64,000 bases of DNA from Nocardioides palaemonis. GTDB taxonomy: Bacteria > Actinomycetota > Actinomycetes > Propionibacteriales > Nocardioidaceae. The translations under genes were made by a program, and so were the position numbers. The notes under the pieces were generated by a model. That model made no database searches. It had not been told where the DNA came from and saw nothing but the letters and a program-made list of their open reading frames with translations. This document shows positions 29,703 to 36,737 of the stretch, piece after piece (the stretch's first letter is position 1; the number at the start of each line of letters is the position of its first letter). The DNA lies in assembly GCF_018275325.1 (NCBI RefSeq), contig NZ_JAGVQR010000001.1, positions 2,046,001-2,110,000 on the forward strand, written 5' to 3'.

Positions 29703-29710
<8 letters not shown>
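28598..29710 (-). CDS. pyrD: Dihydroorotate dehydrogenase, class 2 (quinone-dependent)
   Basis: Membrane-associated PyrD oxidises dihydroorotate to orotate with quinone as acceptor. The 370-residue protein has the class 2 N-terminal extension, [21 protein letters not shown], the catalytic serine loop [24 protein letters not shown] and [12 protein letters not shown]. Two oddities are seen. The start codons lie within a palindromic repeat, so the first residues ([12 protein letters not shown]) are repeat-encoded and no ordinary MYxxLFR start exists. A run of about 17-19 extra residues ([15 protein letters not shown]) sits before GVNIGKSK. It overlaps carB by 8 bases. Catalytic residues are intact. 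Confidence 0.93.
29675..29710. repeat. Palindromic REP-like element across the carB-pyrD junction
   Basis: The stretch begins GTGGTCTCGAGG and ends CCTCAACCAC, giving an imperfect stem around a GC-rich core CTCGCTGCGCTCGC. It looks like the short palindrome commonly dispersed in Nocardioides-type genomes; that resemblance is from memory. It supplies the pyrD start codon and overlaps the carB stop region. Confidence 0.65.
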
Positions 29711-33046
<3,336 letters not shown>

Positions 33047-33047
<1 letters not shown>

Positions 33048-34174
33048 CAGAGGGTGCCTCCCATCAGGTCGCAGAACCGGTCGAACAGGTACGCCGCGTC
33101 GTGCGGGCCGGCGGCGGCCTCCGGGTGGTACTGGACGGAGAAGCTCTTCAGCGCTCCGTCGGGCCCCCGCAGCTCGAGGCCCTCGACGACGTCGTCGTTG
33201 AGGCAGACGTGGCTGACCGACACCTCACCGAACTCCGTGGTGGTCGAGCCCTCGAGCGGGGCGTCGACCGCGAAGCCGTGGTTGTGCGCGGTGACCTCGA
33301 CCTTGCCGGTCGTGCGGTCCATGACGGGCTGGTTGATGCCGCGGTGGCCGTACTTCAGCTTGTAGGTGCCGAAGCCGAGCGCGCGGCCGAAGAGCTGGTT
33401 GCCGAAGCAGATGCCGAAGTAGGGGATGCCGGCGCGCAGCGCGTCCTGCAGGAGCGCGACCTGGCCGGTGGTCGCCGCCGGGTCGCCGGGGCCGTTGGAG
33501 AAGAACAGCCCGTCGGCGCCGGTCGCCTGCACGTCAGCGAGCGTCGCGGTGGCGGGCAGCACGTGGACCTCGATCCCGCGCTCGCTCATCATCCGCGGCG
33601 TGTTGGCCTTGATGCCGAGGTCGACCGCCGCGACGGTGAAGCGCTTCTCGTCGACGGCAGGGACGACGTACGCCTCGCTCGTGCTCACCGCCTCGCTCAG
33701 GTTGGCGCCGGCCATCTCGCCGGACTCGAGCACCCGGGCGAGCAGGCGCTCGGGGTCGGTCTCGGTGGTGGAGATGCCGACCCGCATCGCGCCGCGCTCG
33801 CGCAGGTGGCGCGTGAGCGCGCGGGTGTCGACGCCGCTGATGCCGACGACGCCCTGCTCGCGCAGCGAGTCGTCGAGGGTGCGGGTGCTGCGCCAGCTGC
33901 TCGGCACGCGGGCGGGGTCGCGGACGACGTAGCCGGCGACCCAGATCCGGGAGGACTCGGGGTCCTCGTCGTTCATGCCGGTGTTGCCGACGTGCGGGGC
34001 CGTCATCACGACGACCTGGCGGTGGTAGCTGGGGTCGGTCAGCGTCTCCTGGTAGCCGGACATGCCGGTGGAGAAGACCGCCTCGCCGAAGGTCTCGCCC
34101 TCGGCACCGAAGGACTCACCGCGAAAGATGCGCCCGTCCTCGAGGACCAAGAGCGCTGGGGCAGGCAGAGCCAT
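33047..34174 (-). CDS. carA: Carbamoyl-phosphate synthase small subunit
   Basis: CarA is the glutaminase subunit that feeds ammonia to CarB. The 375-residue protein has the N-terminal [19 protein letters not shown] and a class I glutamine amidotransferase domain with the nucleophile in [16 protein letters not shown] and the His/Glu pair in [13 protein letters not shown]. The ATG at 34174 has a perfect AAGGAGGT six bases upstream; the PyrR-binding stem-loop overlaps that site. It is the first gene of the long pyrimidine operon. Confidence 0.97.
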
Positions 34175-34180
34175 GCCGTA

Positions 34181-34220
34181 CCTCCTTCTCCGCCTCACGG
34201 GACGGATCGTTAAAGGATGT
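34181..34220 (-). promoter_or_regulatory. PyrR-binding leader of carA
   Basis: On the minus strand the leader carries CATCCTTTAACGA, then CCGTCCCGTGAGGCGG, then GAGAAGGAGG. The loop fits the known PyrR RNA consensus UCCNGNGAGG. It ends at the carA ribosome-binding site, so repression should be translational, as shown for mycobacterial PyrR. It matches the pyrR leader at 39 of 40 positions. Confidence 0.85.
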
Positions 34221-34262: not shown

Positions 34263-35903
34263 TCATCGCGTCCACGCCGCGAGTCCCAGCTCCGGGCCCT
34301 CCCAGCGGCGTCGCAGCCAGCGGTCGTGCGAGGCGAGCACGACGCCGCCCGGAGCCGTCGCGAGGGCGTCCTCGAGCTCGCCGGCGAGCGCCAGCGAGAC
34401 GTGGTTGGTCGGCTCGTCGAGCAGCAGCAGGTCGGGCGCGGCGGCGATCGCGACCGCGAGCAGCAGCCGCCGCCGCTGGCCCACCGACAGGCTCCGCACG
34501 GGCGTGCGGTGGTCCCGCGGGTGCAGCAGGCCGAGGTCGCGCAGCGCGGGTGCGCCCGGCAGCGCACGGACCGCGTCGTCGTACGTCGCCGCCGCCGACC
34601 GCGTCGGATCGGCCACGTCCGGGTCCTGGGTCAGCTCGCGGACGGTGCGGGCGGTGACCTCGAGGGTTCCCGCGGTCGGTGCCAGGCGGCCGGACAGCAC
34701 GCCCAGGAGTGTCGACTTGCCGGCCCCGTTCGCGCCTTTGACGAGCAGGTGCTCCCCCGCCGCGAGGTCGAGCCGCGGCAGTCGCAGCCGCCCGTCGACC
34801 ACGACGTCACGGGCCTGCACGAGCCGGCCGGTGGCCGCGGACGTCAGGTCGCCGCGGAACCGCAGCGGCGCGGCGGGCTTGCGGACCTGCTCCCGCTCGG
34901 CCACCTCGAGGCGGCGCTGCGCGTCCTTCTTGCGCCGCGAGAGGGTCTGCTCGACCCGCGCGCCCTTGAAGCCGTAGATGTACTTGTCGCCGTCGGTCGG
35001 CCCCCGGTCGTGGGCGATCGTGCCGGTCCCGATCCGCGTCGCGGCGCGGAGCCGGGCGATCTCCTCCTGCTGCGCGGCATAGGTCTCCTCCCACCGGCGG
35101 CGGGCGTCGGCGCGCGCCGCCTCGTAGGCGCTCCAGCCCCCGCCGAAGCGCCGGCCCCCGCTCCCGTCGGTGCCGAGCTCGCCGGCGTCGAGGTCCACGA
35201 GGTCCGTGCACACGTCGTCGAGGAGCACGCGGTCGTGGCTCGCCAGCAGCACCACGCCCGGCAGGTCGAGGAGGAACTGGGTGAGGACCTCGATCGCGTC
35301 GTCGTCGAGGTGGTTGGTGGGCTCGTCGAGGAGCAGGCAGGTGGGGCGGGTGGTCATGATCGTCGCGAGGGCCAGACGGGTGCGCTGGCCGCCCGACAGC
35401 GTGCCGACCGGTCGGTCGGCGTCGATCCCGTCGAGCCCGAGGCGGGCCGCCGCCACCGTGGCGCGACGGTCGGCGTCCCAGGCGTCGTGCGCGACCGCGA
35501 GCTCCAGCGCACGCTCGTACGCCGCGGCGCCGTCGTCGGTGTCGAGGTGGGCGGCGAGCCGCTCGACGTCCGCGACCGCGGTGCGCAGCGGCGCCAGCGT
35601 CAGGGCCAGCACCTCGGCCACGGTGTCCGTGTCGCGGAATGGCGGCTCCTGGCCGAGCAGCACCAGGTCGTCGGGAGCGTCGATGCTGCCCGCGAGCCGC
35701 GCCCGGTCGGGAAGCCGGCCGGCGACGGCGCGCAGCAGGGTCGACTTGCCGGCGCCGTTCTCGCCGACGAGCCCGATCCGGCGCCCCGGCTGGGCGAGCA
35801 GGTCGATCCCGCTCAGCACGGTGCGGTCCGGGAAGCTCACCGAGAGCCCGGTGACGACGAGGGGTGCGACGCCCGGGACGGGGCGGGTGGAGGCGGATGA
35901 CAT
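34263..35903 (-). CDS. ABC-F family ATPase (ribosome-associated, possible antibiotic resistance)
   Basis: ABC-F proteins bind the ribosomal E-site and rescue stalled or antibiotic-blocked ribosomes; they have two ATPase domains and no membrane segments. The 546-residue protein shows GENGAGKST (47-55), LSGGQRTRLAL and DEPTNHLDDDAIEVL in the first domain, and GANGAGKST, LSVGQRRR and DEPTNHVSLAL in the second. The interdomain linker (RRRWEETYAAQQEEIARLRAATRIG...SRRKKDAQRRLEVAE) is charged and helical, as in resistance types. The ATG at 35903 has AAGGA upstream. The 5' region holds a leader ORF and competing hairpins, suggesting induction by ribosome inhibitors. The drug range cannot be read from sequence. 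Confidence 0.9.
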   Translation of the reverse strand: MSSASTRPVPGVAPLVVTGLSVSFPDRTVLSGIDLLAQPGRRIGLVGENGAGKSTLLRAVAGRLPDRARLAGSIDAPDDLVLLGQEPPFRDTDTVAEVLALTLAPLRTAVADVERLAAHLDTDDGAAAYERALELAVAHDAWDADRRATVAAARLGLDGIDADRPVGTLSGGQRTRLALATIMTTRPTCLLLDEPTNHLDDDAIEVLTQFLLDLPGVVLLASHDRVLLDDVCTDLVDLDAGELGTDGSGGRRFGGGWSAYEAARADARRRWEETYAAQQEEIARLRAATRIGTGTIAHDRGPTDGDKYIYGFKGARVEQTLSRRKKDAQRRLEVAEREQVRKPAAPLRFRGDLTSAATGRLVQARDVVVDGRLRLPRLDLAAGEHLLVKGANGAGKSTLLGVLSGRLAPTAGTLEVTARTVRELTQDPDVADPTRSAAATYDDAVRALPGAPALRDLGLLHPRDHRTPVRSLSVGQRRRLLLAVAIAAAPDLLLLDEPTNHVSLALAGELEDALATAPGGVVLASHDRWLRRRWEGPELGLAAWTR

Positions 35904-35906
35904 GCG

Positions 35907-35977
35907 GAGTCCTTGCGGGTCAGCGGGTGGACTCGCCGGGCACGGGCGCACGGGGTGCGCCGCCGCGGTCGCGAGTC
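35907..35977 (-). promoter_or_regulatory. Candidate attenuator or SD-sequestering leader of the ABC-F gene
   Basis: On the minus strand GACTCGC (35971-35977) can pair with GCGAGTC (35930-35936) around an inner hairpin GGCGCAC/GTGCGCC (35945-35961). Alternatively GAGTCC (35929-35934) can pair with GGACTC (35907-35912), which overlaps the ABC-F ribosome-binding site AAGGA. The two pairings exclude each other. Confidence 0.6.
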
Positions 35978-35980
35978 GGG

Positions 35981-35998
35981 TCAGTCCTGGATCCACAT
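35981..35998 (-). CDS. Leader peptide MWIQD upstream of the ABC-F gene
   Basis: A six-codon ORF (ATG TGG ATC CAG GAC TGA) begins about 10 bases after the -10 box and stops 3 bases before the first attenuator arm. Tiny ORFs of this kind precede many inducible ABC-F and erm genes, where ribosome stalling switches folding. It is too short for homology; the claim rests on position and the competing stem-loops. Confidence 0.55.
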   Translation of the reverse strand: MWIQD

Positions 35999-36007
35999 GG
36001 TGGGTCG

Positions 36008-36046
36008 AGCCTAGCCGCGGCGGTGCTGCCCGCCAACCGGTTTTGC
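36008..36046 (-). promoter_or_regulatory. Promoter of the ABC-F gene, WhiB7-like layout
   Basis: On the minus strand TTGGCG (36031-36036) and TAGGCT (36008-36013) are spaced by exactly 17 bases. An AAAA stretch lies four bases upstream of the -35, resembling WhiB7-dependent promoters with an AT-rich patch next to GGTTG. WhiB7 control is inference. Confidence 0.55.
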
Positions 36047-36092: not shown

Positions 36093-36737
36093 ATGACCCC
36101 CTCCACGACCGTCCTGTCCCGCGTCGCTCTCGCTGCGGCCGCCCTCGTCTGCCCCGCCGCTCTGGTGGCGGCACCCGCCCACGCCGAGGTGGTCATCGAC
36201 TGCGCCGGTGGCGCCGTGACCGTCGACCAGAGCGTGGAGACGGTGACCCTGACCGGCACCTGCACCGACGTCGTGGTCTCGGGCAGCAACACGGTGGTGA
36301 CGATGCCGGGCGCCACCAGCCTGTCGGTGACCGGGGCCAACACCGACGTCACGTCGTCCGGGCCGGTGGGCGACCTCGAGGTGTCGGCCGGCAACAGCTC
36401 GGTCACCGCGCCCGCCGCCGGCACCGTGACCCTCGGCGAGGGCAACGACTCGGCACGGATCGCGGGCACCGTGGGCCGGGTGCGCCTGCTGGCCGGCAAC
36501 ACCCGCCTCGTCGCGGGCCGTACCGGCGCCGTGCTCGTGCGCACGTCCAACGCCACCCTCCGCGCCGACCGCGCCAGCAAGGTCGTCGTGCGCGGCGCCA
36601 ACAACACCGTGCGGGTCGGTCGCCTCCCGACGCTGAAGGTCGTCGGGGCCAACAACCGGGTCACGGTGGCGAAGGGGCGTACGGCCGTGACCGTGCGCGG
36701 CGCCAACAACGTGGTGCGGGTGCACCGGAAGGCCTGA
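36093..36737 (+). CDS. DUF3060 family secreted protein
   Basis: A 214-residue protein with a Sec signal peptide (hydrophobic ALAAAALVCPAALVAAPAHA, cleavage near residue 31). The mature part is a series of short beta repeats carrying GANNTV/GANNRV/GSNTVV motifs, typical of DUF3060 proteins and suggestive of a small beta-helix. One cysteine pair (DCAGG, GTCTDV) may form a disulfide. The function is unknown; export to the cell surface or medium is expected. Confidence 0.85.
   Translation: MTPSTTVLSRVALAAAALVCPAALVAAPAHAEVVIDCAGGAVTVDQSVETVTLTGTCTDVVVSGSNTVVTMPGATSLSVTGANTDVTSSGPVGDLEVSAGNSSVTAPAAGTVTLGEGNDSARIAGTVGRVRLLAGNTRLVAGRTGAVLVRTSNATLRADRASKVVVRGANNTVRVGRLPTLKVVGANNRVTVAKGRTAVTVRGANNVVRVHRKA

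What the first reader, a model, noticed from the sequence alone, without database searches (positions are those of the whole stretch)
35904..36046. MWIQD leader ORF and mutually exclusive stem-loops before an ABC-F gene
A promoter with a perfect 17-bp spacer and an AT-rich patch next to its -35 is followed after about ten bases by a five-residue ORF, MWIQD. Its stop lies 3 bases before GACTCGC, which can pair with GCGAGTC around an inner hairpin. The same central region can instead pair as GAGTCC with GGACTC over the ABC-F ribosome-binding site. This is the architecture of ribosome-mediated attenuation of resistance genes. The direction of the switch is not clear: a ribosome held on the leader would block the first arm and could favour the SD-covering pair, opposite to classic erm control.
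Basis: partly seen in the sequence, partly recalled or inferred. Interest (0 to 1): 0.75.

Follow-up and report, generated by a model that had tools for sequence, protein, structure and literature searches.

The report
Mini reading frame masking resistance start
Just ahead of a gene for a likely antibiotic-resistance protein, actinobacteria of about 25 genus-level groups carry a tiny reading frame of one to five codons, and the RNA of that frame is predicted to cover the gene's own start signal until a ribosome, probably one halted by an antibiotic, sits on it and uncovers it.

Summary
The observed parts are real: promoter-like sequence, MWIQD uORF, hairpin P1, ABC-F gene. They belong to a leader family that I assigned by eye in 102 of 145 records (80 distinct leaders, about 25 genus-level groups); Rfam has no match. 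The uORF lies so near the -10 box that the transcript should be nearly leaderless. It has 1, 3 or 5 codons. Its AUG keeps a fixed distance to P1 (25.4, sd 1.1 nt); its stop does not (sd 3.8). P1 covaries. Instead the uORF RNA itself pairs with the ABC-F start region (helix P0): z -10.7 over 65 leaders; one leader per genus, z -7.7, 0 of 100,000 swaps as good. So the switch would turn the classic way: a ribosome on the uORF unmasks the ABC-F start. The promoter has the WhiB7-type AT tract (65 of 77). In the window's own copy support is weaker: P0 lies over the two start codons, and computed unmasking is small (0.31 to 0.36). Nothing has been tested at the bench. New variant of ribosome-mediated attenuation.

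The parts
36031..36044 (-). AT tract (AAAA) and -35-like TTGGCG: WhiB7/WblC-type promoter element
   Evidence: AT run of 3 or more at this place in 65 of 77 leaders against 55 of 1914 background windows and 10, 6 and 3 of 77 in neighbouring promoter windows; WblC motif described in PMC7157823, passages
36008..36013 (-). -10 hexamer TAGGCT, 9 nt before the uORF start codon; predicted transcript start about 2-3 nt before the AUG
   Evidence: -10 end to AUG 6-10 nt in 77 of 80 distinct leaders, none found in 3
35981..35998 (-). near-leaderless uORF MWIQD*; also most of the 5' strand of helix P0 (35999-35989)
35930..35977 (-). hairpin P1: arms 35977-35971 and 35936-35930, inner pairs CG and GGC..GCC, inner hairpin 35961-35945
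35901..35912 (-). 3' strand of helix P0: end of Shine-Dalgarno, spacer and start codon of ABC-F (GGA, bulged C, UCCGCAUG)
   Evidence: MFE; swap tests
35910..35914 (-). ABC-F Shine-Dalgarno AAGGA
   Evidence: by sequence
34263..35903 (-). ABC-F ATPase (546 aa); best NCBIfam model TlrC/CarA/OleB/SrmB-type ribosomal protection protein, below its cut-off

Best explanation
This is predicted to be a translational attenuator in which the RNA of a near-leaderless, one- to five-codon uORF is itself the strand that masks the start region of the ABC-F gene, and a ribosome held on the uORF start codon, most likely by a drug at the peptidyl-transferase centre, would unmask it. Shown by comparison: the uORF is conserved in the window's clade, uORF RNA co-varies with the ABC-F start region across the family (P0), hairpin P1 co-varies, the AUG and not the stop keeps a fixed distance to P1, and no intrinsic terminator is seen. 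Inferred: transcription starts 0-3 nt before the AUG under a WhiB7-type promoter. As the leader RNA emerges, a 70S ribosome can load on the 5'-terminal AUG before the ABC-F start, 95 nt downstream in the window, is made. Without drug the few codons are read quickly, the uORF RNA becomes free, closes on the ABC-F start over P1 and keeps it off. With drug the ribosome stays on the AUG; its leading edge near +16 leaves P1 (from about +22) free to fold, P0 cannot form, and ABC-F is translated. Untested: which drugs induce, and whether ABC-F protects against them.
For: P0 swap test: 65 leaders, own pairs -14.19 against swapped -10.72 kcal/mol, z -10.7, 0 of 20000; without the ABC-F start codon z -7.8, 0 of 20000. 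One leader per genus-level group, n 25: z -7.7 (uORF +10..+20 x -12..+6), 0 of 100000; z -3.5, 34 of 100000, for the longer segments without either start codon; 200 redraws of representatives z -9.4 to -7.0. 17 control segment pairs lie between z -1.7 and +2.9. Window's own clade: first uORF bases pair with the clade's 19 distinct start regions at -11.51 against -6.42 with 77 other start regions, p 1.9e-10, 0 of 200 leader shuffles as good. Jiangella L101 and L106 differ on both sides, leader U to C and ABC-F start codon AUG to GUG, pairing kept. P1: z -6.4; 33 double-changed cells against 10.2 by shuffling. Ruler: AUG to P1 core 25.35 sd 1.06, stop to core 10.83 sd 3.78, in the 69 of 80 leaders with a core. 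Masking the uORF to +17 raises computed openness of -12..+3 in 71 of 80 leaders; gain 0.155 against 0.042 with shuffled leaders, larger in 68 of 80. 29 of 29 top loci and 38 of 40 further fetched loci precede an ABC-F. No intrinsic terminator called in the window. Toeprint 16 nt from the A of AUG (PMC9226507, passage); [quoted passage not shown]
Against: No transcript start, ribosome profiling or induction data. In the window's clade the uORF hardly varies, so it cannot show covariation; P0 there rests partly on CAUG facing CAUG. Among 30 representatives the window's leader ranks its own start region 7th with start codons and 25th without. In the clade the +10..+20 register is not better than shuffled leaders (103 of 200), nor the longer segment without start codons (89 of 200). 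Own partner ranks first for only 4-5 of 30 leaders in the wide windows (3-5 over the four window choices); the signal is in the mean. Computed unmasking is small in the window (0.31 to 0.36) and positive in 12 of 19 clade members. A ribosome at the last codon also opens the start on average (0.41, AUG 0.44, free 0.28), so AUG stalling is singled out by the ruler, not by folding. With the leader masked the arm2:SD pair computes 1.9 kcal/mol better than P1 in the window. Swap tests do not fully remove relatedness. 11 of 80 leaders lack the P1 core by my pattern. Leaders were assigned by eye after an automatic motif search had mixed true and false ones. Of 17 other genomes with a distant ABC-F in the phylum sample (36-51% identity) only two (G304, G315) show the leader model at that gene.
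Confidence: 0.66

Rival explanations
1. One reading: P1 arm 2 alternates between arm 1 and the ABC-F ribosome-binding site, so a ribosome near the uORF stop would turn ABC-F off.
For: GAGUCC:GGACUC exists in the window; with the leader masked it is in the MFE.
Against: No co-evolution over 26 leaders (z -1.0); the stop codon does not keep its distance to P1.
Confidence: 0.09
2. Transcription attenuation: the leader decides between termination (intrinsic or Rho-dependent) and read-through, as for lmrC, are5sc, vmlR and cplR.
For: Transcription terminators figure in the ABC-F leaders of the papers seen.
Against: None called in the window; between uORF and ABC-F the richest 8-nt stretch has 4 T or fewer in 77 of 80 leaders and 5 T in 3; the conserved pairing is with the translation start region. 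Rho-dependent termination is not excluded.
Confidence: 0.1
3. P1 binds a ligand or protein (several of its unpaired core bases are conserved), and the uORF only adds to it.
For: Core bases conserved beyond pairing; the core does not pair with the start region (z +1.4, n 21).
Against: 11 of 80 leaders lack the core by my pattern yet have a uORF and a predicted P0; no Rfam match.
Confidence: 0.09
4. Only the WhiB7-type promoter matters; uORF and pairing are incidental.
For: AT tract in 65 of 77 leaders; ABC-F genes are WhiB7 targets in M. abscessus (PMC10727445, passages).
Against: P0 and P1 co-evolution and the fixed AUG-P1 distance.
Confidence: 0.05

Closest known systems
cplR leader, Clostridioides difficile (PMC10201436, passages)
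   Same: Three-codon uORF (MRI) before an ARE-ABCF, thought to be stalled by drugs that act just after initiation; translational attenuation alone can repress
   Different: Intrinsic terminator hairpin that also covers the SD; here no terminator seen, near-leaderless, and the uORF itself covers the start
vmlR leader, Bacillus subtilis (PMC9226507, passages)
   Same: Tripeptide uORF MIN whose translation is needed for induction; an SD-sequestering hairpin
   Different: uORF with its own SD, terminator and NusG pausing; the SD hairpin (SL-4) is separate from the uORF
are5sc, tiaA and lmrC leaders, Streptomyces (PMC12421871, PMC8546547, passages)
   Same: Actinobacterial ABC-F genes under uORF control; stalling at the start codon by lincosamide, streptogramin A and pleuromutilin drugs shown for are5sc and tiaA
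   Different: Long 5' UTRs (tiaA 194, are5sc 232 bp) with predicted terminator/antiterminator; ARE5 proteins
leaderless leu, trp and ilv leader peptides of Streptomyces lividans (PMC8079986, passages)
   Same: Leaderless leader-peptide frames used in attenuation
   Different: 12-18 residues, amino-acid sensing, several with a U-rich terminator
whiB7/wblC uORF (PMC10727445, PMC11550727, passages)
   Same: Antibiotic-responsive uORF in actinobacteria
   Different: Terminator-based control of a transcription factor; the present promoter resembles that factor's targets

Membership tests
Ribosome-mediated (translational) attenuators of ARE-ABCF genes | Short uORF upstream of an ABC-F gene, conserved in relatives | tested here: met
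   102 of 145 records, 80 distinct leaders; 29 of 29 and 38 of 40 model-found loci precede ABC-F
Ribosome-mediated (translational) attenuators of ARE-ABCF genes | RNA structure involving the uORF that masks the ABC-F SD/start | tested here: met
   co-evolution across the family; mixed for the window's own copy
Ribosome-mediated (translational) attenuators of ARE-ABCF genes | Induction by ribosome-stalling drugs through the uORF | not testable with these tools
   needs reporter or toeprint
Terminator/antiterminator attenuators (lmrC, vmlR type) | Intrinsic terminator in the leader | tested here: not met
   window; T content, 80 leaders
WhiB7/WblC regulon promoters | AT-rich tract near -35, 17-18 bp spacer, TANNNT | tested here: met
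   (AT tract, 65 of 77); spacer and hexamers of the window by sequence; description
WhiB7/WblC regulon promoters | WhiB7 in the genome and bound here | tested here: inconclusive
   a WhiB protein with an RGRPRK tail (AT-hook, recalled) is present, L202; NCBIfam gives it no name; binding not testable
TlrC/CarA/OleB/SrmB ABC-F resistance proteins (NF000171) | Score above NCBIfam cut-off | tested here: not met
   348.3 bits against 800
Rfam families | Match at the leader | tested here: not met
   window: none at gathering score; 12 relatives at E up to 1: four matches, none at the leader (tmRNA in L096 and three below gathering score)
Leaderless mRNA | Transcript start 0-3 nt before the start codon | tested here: inconclusive
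   -10 to AUG spacing 6-10 nt in 77 of 80; no transcript data

The most novel reading that the evidence does not exclude
A peptide-independent detector of ribosomes parked on an AUG: the message is only that a 70S ribosome sits on the first codon of the transcript. The coding part has become dispensable, down to start-stop frames (ATG TGA) in Jiangella and Cellulosimicrobium, while the AUG-to-hairpin ruler and the antisense match to the ABC-F start are kept; the uORF is at once sensor and anti-Shine-Dalgarno strand, layered under a WhiB7 promoter as a two-input gate.
Probability: 0.33. Interest if true: 0.8.

Novelty: new variant of a known kind. Interest (0 to 1): 0.6.

Why it matters
If true it would be the most compact antibiotic-responsive attenuator I can recall: no leader, one to five codons, no terminator, and sensor and masking strand in the same bases. 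It gives a simple rule (AUG-to-P1 ruler plus uORF:start complementarity) for finding inducible resistance genes in actinobacteria that annotation misses, and it predicts that drugs acting at the first peptide bond are the inducers, which toeprinting and a reporter can test. The start-stop forms would separate sensing of initiating ribosomes from sensing of nascent peptides.

Tried and rejected
Arm2:SD alternation as the conserved switch: not supported. P1 core as an anti-SD: z +1.4. Trp-sensing by MWIQD: rejected because relatives have MKN, MLILA, MKISR, MEL and M. Known RNA family: none at the leader. The same leader before other genes: in the own genome the next match is at E 0.002; of the 69 family loci read (29 top, 40 chosen from the rest) the two without ABC-F were weak matches (L177 E 1.5e-6, L179 E 8.6e-6); other weak matches were not fetched. 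In the phylum sample 18 of 396 genomes match at E <= 0.01, and of the 18 loci L112-L129 only L113 and L118 hold an ABC-F, so I take most of these weak matches for background. Start-stop against a GUG two bases on (VI* in Jiangella) cannot be decided by sequence. uORF lengths 1, 3, 5 only (80 leaders): L206 looks like 4 codons, so no rule is claimed. An automatic motif search marked 76 of 107 records, with false ones among them, and was replaced by assignment by eye. Structure prediction of the ABC-F was not run.

Full report
What is there. On the minus strand an AT tract, a -35-like TTGGCG, a 17-nt spacer and TAGGCT are followed after 9 nt by ATGTGGATCCAGGACTGA (MWIQD*), then by a GC-rich hairpin (P1) and, 95 nt after the uORF AUG, by the ATG of a 546-aa ABC-F protein. 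The best NCBIfam model for that protein is the TlrC/CarA/OleB/SrmB ribosomal-protection group, at 348 bits under a cut-off of 800, so it is of resistance type by resemblance only. I take the genus to be Nocardioides because the closest named loci (79-86% identity, L029-L045 among them) are Nocardioides; this is inference.

Is it more than chance. The window folded alone is not remarkable (z -1.77). Comparison is. From the window, 104 loci (L003-L106) and 40 loci I assigned leaders by eye in 102 of 145 records, 80 of them distinct over 30 nt. Of the 19 named loci whose ABC-F is 79% or more identical to the window's, 17 have the 18 uORF bases exactly and two differ by 1 and 2 bases. Among 19 MWIQD leaders the next 24 bases are 94% identical, while blocks between -60 and -4 are 54-63% identical (these 19 were picked for their uORF, so only the flanks are informative there). 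A covariance model of uORF plus P1 finds the window's leader at E 1.4e-15 and nothing else in that genome below 0.002. In 341 genomes of the family 105 match at E <= 0.001; 29 of 29 top loci and 38 of 40 others fetched lie just before an ABC-F gene. The 14 genus genomes with a strong ABC-F match (own included) all have a strong leader match; of the other 23 handles only G030 is listed there, with a weak match not before an ABC-F. Further away the leader thins out: of 17 other genomes with an ABC-F at E <= 1e-60 in the phylum sample two show the model at that gene (G304, G315).

The uORF is tiny, near-leaderless and measured from its AUG. Among 80 distinct leaders it has 3 codons in 38, 5 in 34 and 1 (ATG TGA) in 8; the peptides share little (MKN, MWI, MKS, MEL, MLILA, MKISR, MWIQD and others). 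The -10 hexamer ends 6-10 nt before the AUG in 77 of 80, and in 3 I found none. In Streptomyces WblC promoters most transcripts start 7 or 8 bp after the -10 (PMC7157823, passages), so the 5' UTR should be 0-3 nt; this is inferred. The distance from AUG to the P1 core is 25.35 nt, sd 1.06, whereas that from the stop to the core has sd 3.78 (69 of 80 leaders; 11 have no core by my pattern). A ribosome with the AUG in its P site reaches to about +16 (30S toeprint in PMC9226507, passage); in the window P1 begins at +22. The ruler therefore fits a ribosome waiting on the AUG better than one at the stop.

Which pairings are real. P1: over 40 leaders 95.2% of cells pair, 33 cells change on both sides against 10.2 by shuffling, and sliding the partner drops pairing to 45% or less; arm 1 fits its own arm 2 better than swapped ones (z -6.4, 26 of 30 representatives). 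A different helix, seen first in the minimum-energy fold of the window, does: the uORF RNA with the ABC-F start region (P0). Own pairs average -14.19 kcal/mol against -10.72 for swapped, z -10.7, 0 of 20000; without the ABC-F start codon z -7.8 (65 leaders). With one leader for each of 25 groups that I treat as genera (one, L071, is of unnamed genus and could coincide with another) z is -7.7, 0 of 100000; the longer segments without start codons give z -3.5, 34 of 100000; 200 redraws of representatives give -9.4 to -7.0. Seventeen control pairs of segments from the same loci give z -1.7 to +2.9. The signal lies in uORF bases +10 to +20 and ABC-F -12 to +6, strongest in three-codon uORFs (z -9.3), weaker in one-codon (z -3.0, n 7) and five-codon ones (z -4.4). 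It is a signal in the mean: the own partner ranks first for only 3-5 of 30 leaders. Examples: AAGAGCU and ACCACC with AGCUCUU and GGUGGU in L068; GACACCGA with UCGGUGUC in L161. In Jiangella the ABC-F start codon and the opposite leader base change together (AUG with U in L101, GUG with C in L106).

The window's own copy. Its clade has a nearly unchanging uORF, so covariation within it cannot be seen. There P0 uses the beginning of the uORF, CAUGUGGA with UCCGCAUG plus UCC with GGA. The first bases of this uORF pair with the clade's 19 distinct start regions at -11.51 on average and with 77 other start regions at -6.42 (p 1.9e-10), and none of 200 shuffled leaders does as well; but the +10..+20 register is not better than shuffles (103 of 200), nor is the longer segment with both start codons left out (89 of 200), and among 30 representatives the window's leader ranks its own start region 7th with start codons and 25th without. 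So part of the match in this clade is start codon with start codon.

What a ribosome would do. Masking the uORF to +17 raises the computed openness of ABC-F -12..+3 in 71 of 80 leaders, from 0.28 to 0.44 on average; masking for a ribosome at the last codon gives 0.41, so in the folding any ribosome on the uORF opens the start, and it is the ruler that points to the AUG. The gain from masking to +17 is 0.155 against 0.042 for shuffled leaders and larger in 68 of 80. In the window it is small (0.31 to 0.36), and in its clade it is positive in 12 of 19. With the leader masked, the window's arm2:SD state computes 1.9 kcal/mol better than the P1 state; since P1 is transcribed first I expect P1 to persist, but this is inference and the weakest point for the window itself. 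No intrinsic terminator is called in the window; between uORF and ABC-F the richest 8-nt stretch holds at most 4 T in 77 of 80 leaders and 5 T in 3. So control by translation is favoured; Rho is not excluded.

Promoter. Counting from the -10, an AT run of 3 or more lies at the WhiB7 position in 65 of 77 leaders, against 55 of 1914 background windows and 10, 6 and 3 of 77 in neighbouring promoter windows. The genome has four WhiB matches, one with a PRKRPRGRPRKSE tail that looks like the WhiB7 AT-hook (the identification is recalled, NCBIfam gives no name). ABC-F genes are among direct WhiB7 targets in Mycobacterium abscessus (PMC10727445, passages). So two inputs are likely: transcription by WhiB7 and translation by the leader.

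What is known. uORFs of about 3 codons before ABC-F genes are established, and stalling at the start codon by lincosamides, streptogramin A and pleuromutilins has been shown for two of them in Streptomyces (PMC12421871; also PMC10201436, PMC9226507, PMC8546547: passages only). In these cases the leader also holds a terminator, predicted or shown. Leaderless leader peptides are known for amino-acid genes of Streptomyces (PMC8079986, passages). I did not find the present leader in print: nine searches of an open-access library, listings and abstracts only apart from the papers named, so subscription papers are not covered. Hence: new variant of a known kind.

Open points. Several unpaired bases of the P1 core are conserved without an explanation; the window itself has A where most have C or T. 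The start-stop forms cannot be told from a GUG start two bases on by sequence alone. In three leaders outside the set (L203, L206, L218) the own pairing is stronger than the mean of 25 foreign partners in all six comparisons, but ranks first in one and 6th to 9th in the others.

Noticed in passing
L018, L020, L211, L212, L213, L216, L221, L225, upstream of ABC-F: A second kind of near-leaderless uORF (MGSL, MGTLLFFL, MGTLLILL, MHLYFL, MASYFYL, MQQLLFL, VIRFYYFYI) stands 110-245 nt before other actinobacterial ABC-F genes, most with a GGAGG-type Shine-Dalgarno; own leader:start pairing beats swaps (24 of 20000 as good, n 8).
   Followed up: partly
window 35965-35970 and homologous leaders: Unpaired P1 core bases (G-Y-C bulge, here G-A-C, and an A/C bulge) are conserved in most aligned leaders, which pairing alone does not explain.
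   Followed up: partly
L101, L102, L103, L105, L106 (Jiangella); L080, L081, L088, L089, L095 (Cellulosimicrobium): uORF reduced to ATG TGA; in Jiangella it looks like a one-base shortening of ATGTGGATCTGA, with a GTG ATC TGA frame two bases on.
   Followed up: partly
window 36093-36737 (+): A divergent gene for a DUF3060 protein starts 95 nt from the uORF start, so the two promoters share one short intergenic region.
   Followed up: no
window 29703-34198 (-): Downstream of ABC-F on the same strand lie two long genes that look like carbamoyl-phosphate synthase subunits (recognised by eye, no family search).
   Followed up: no
L202 (G000:C3:438364-438510): WhiB protein with a PRKRPRGRPRKSE tail, probably WhiB7, not named by NCBIfam.
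   Followed up: partly
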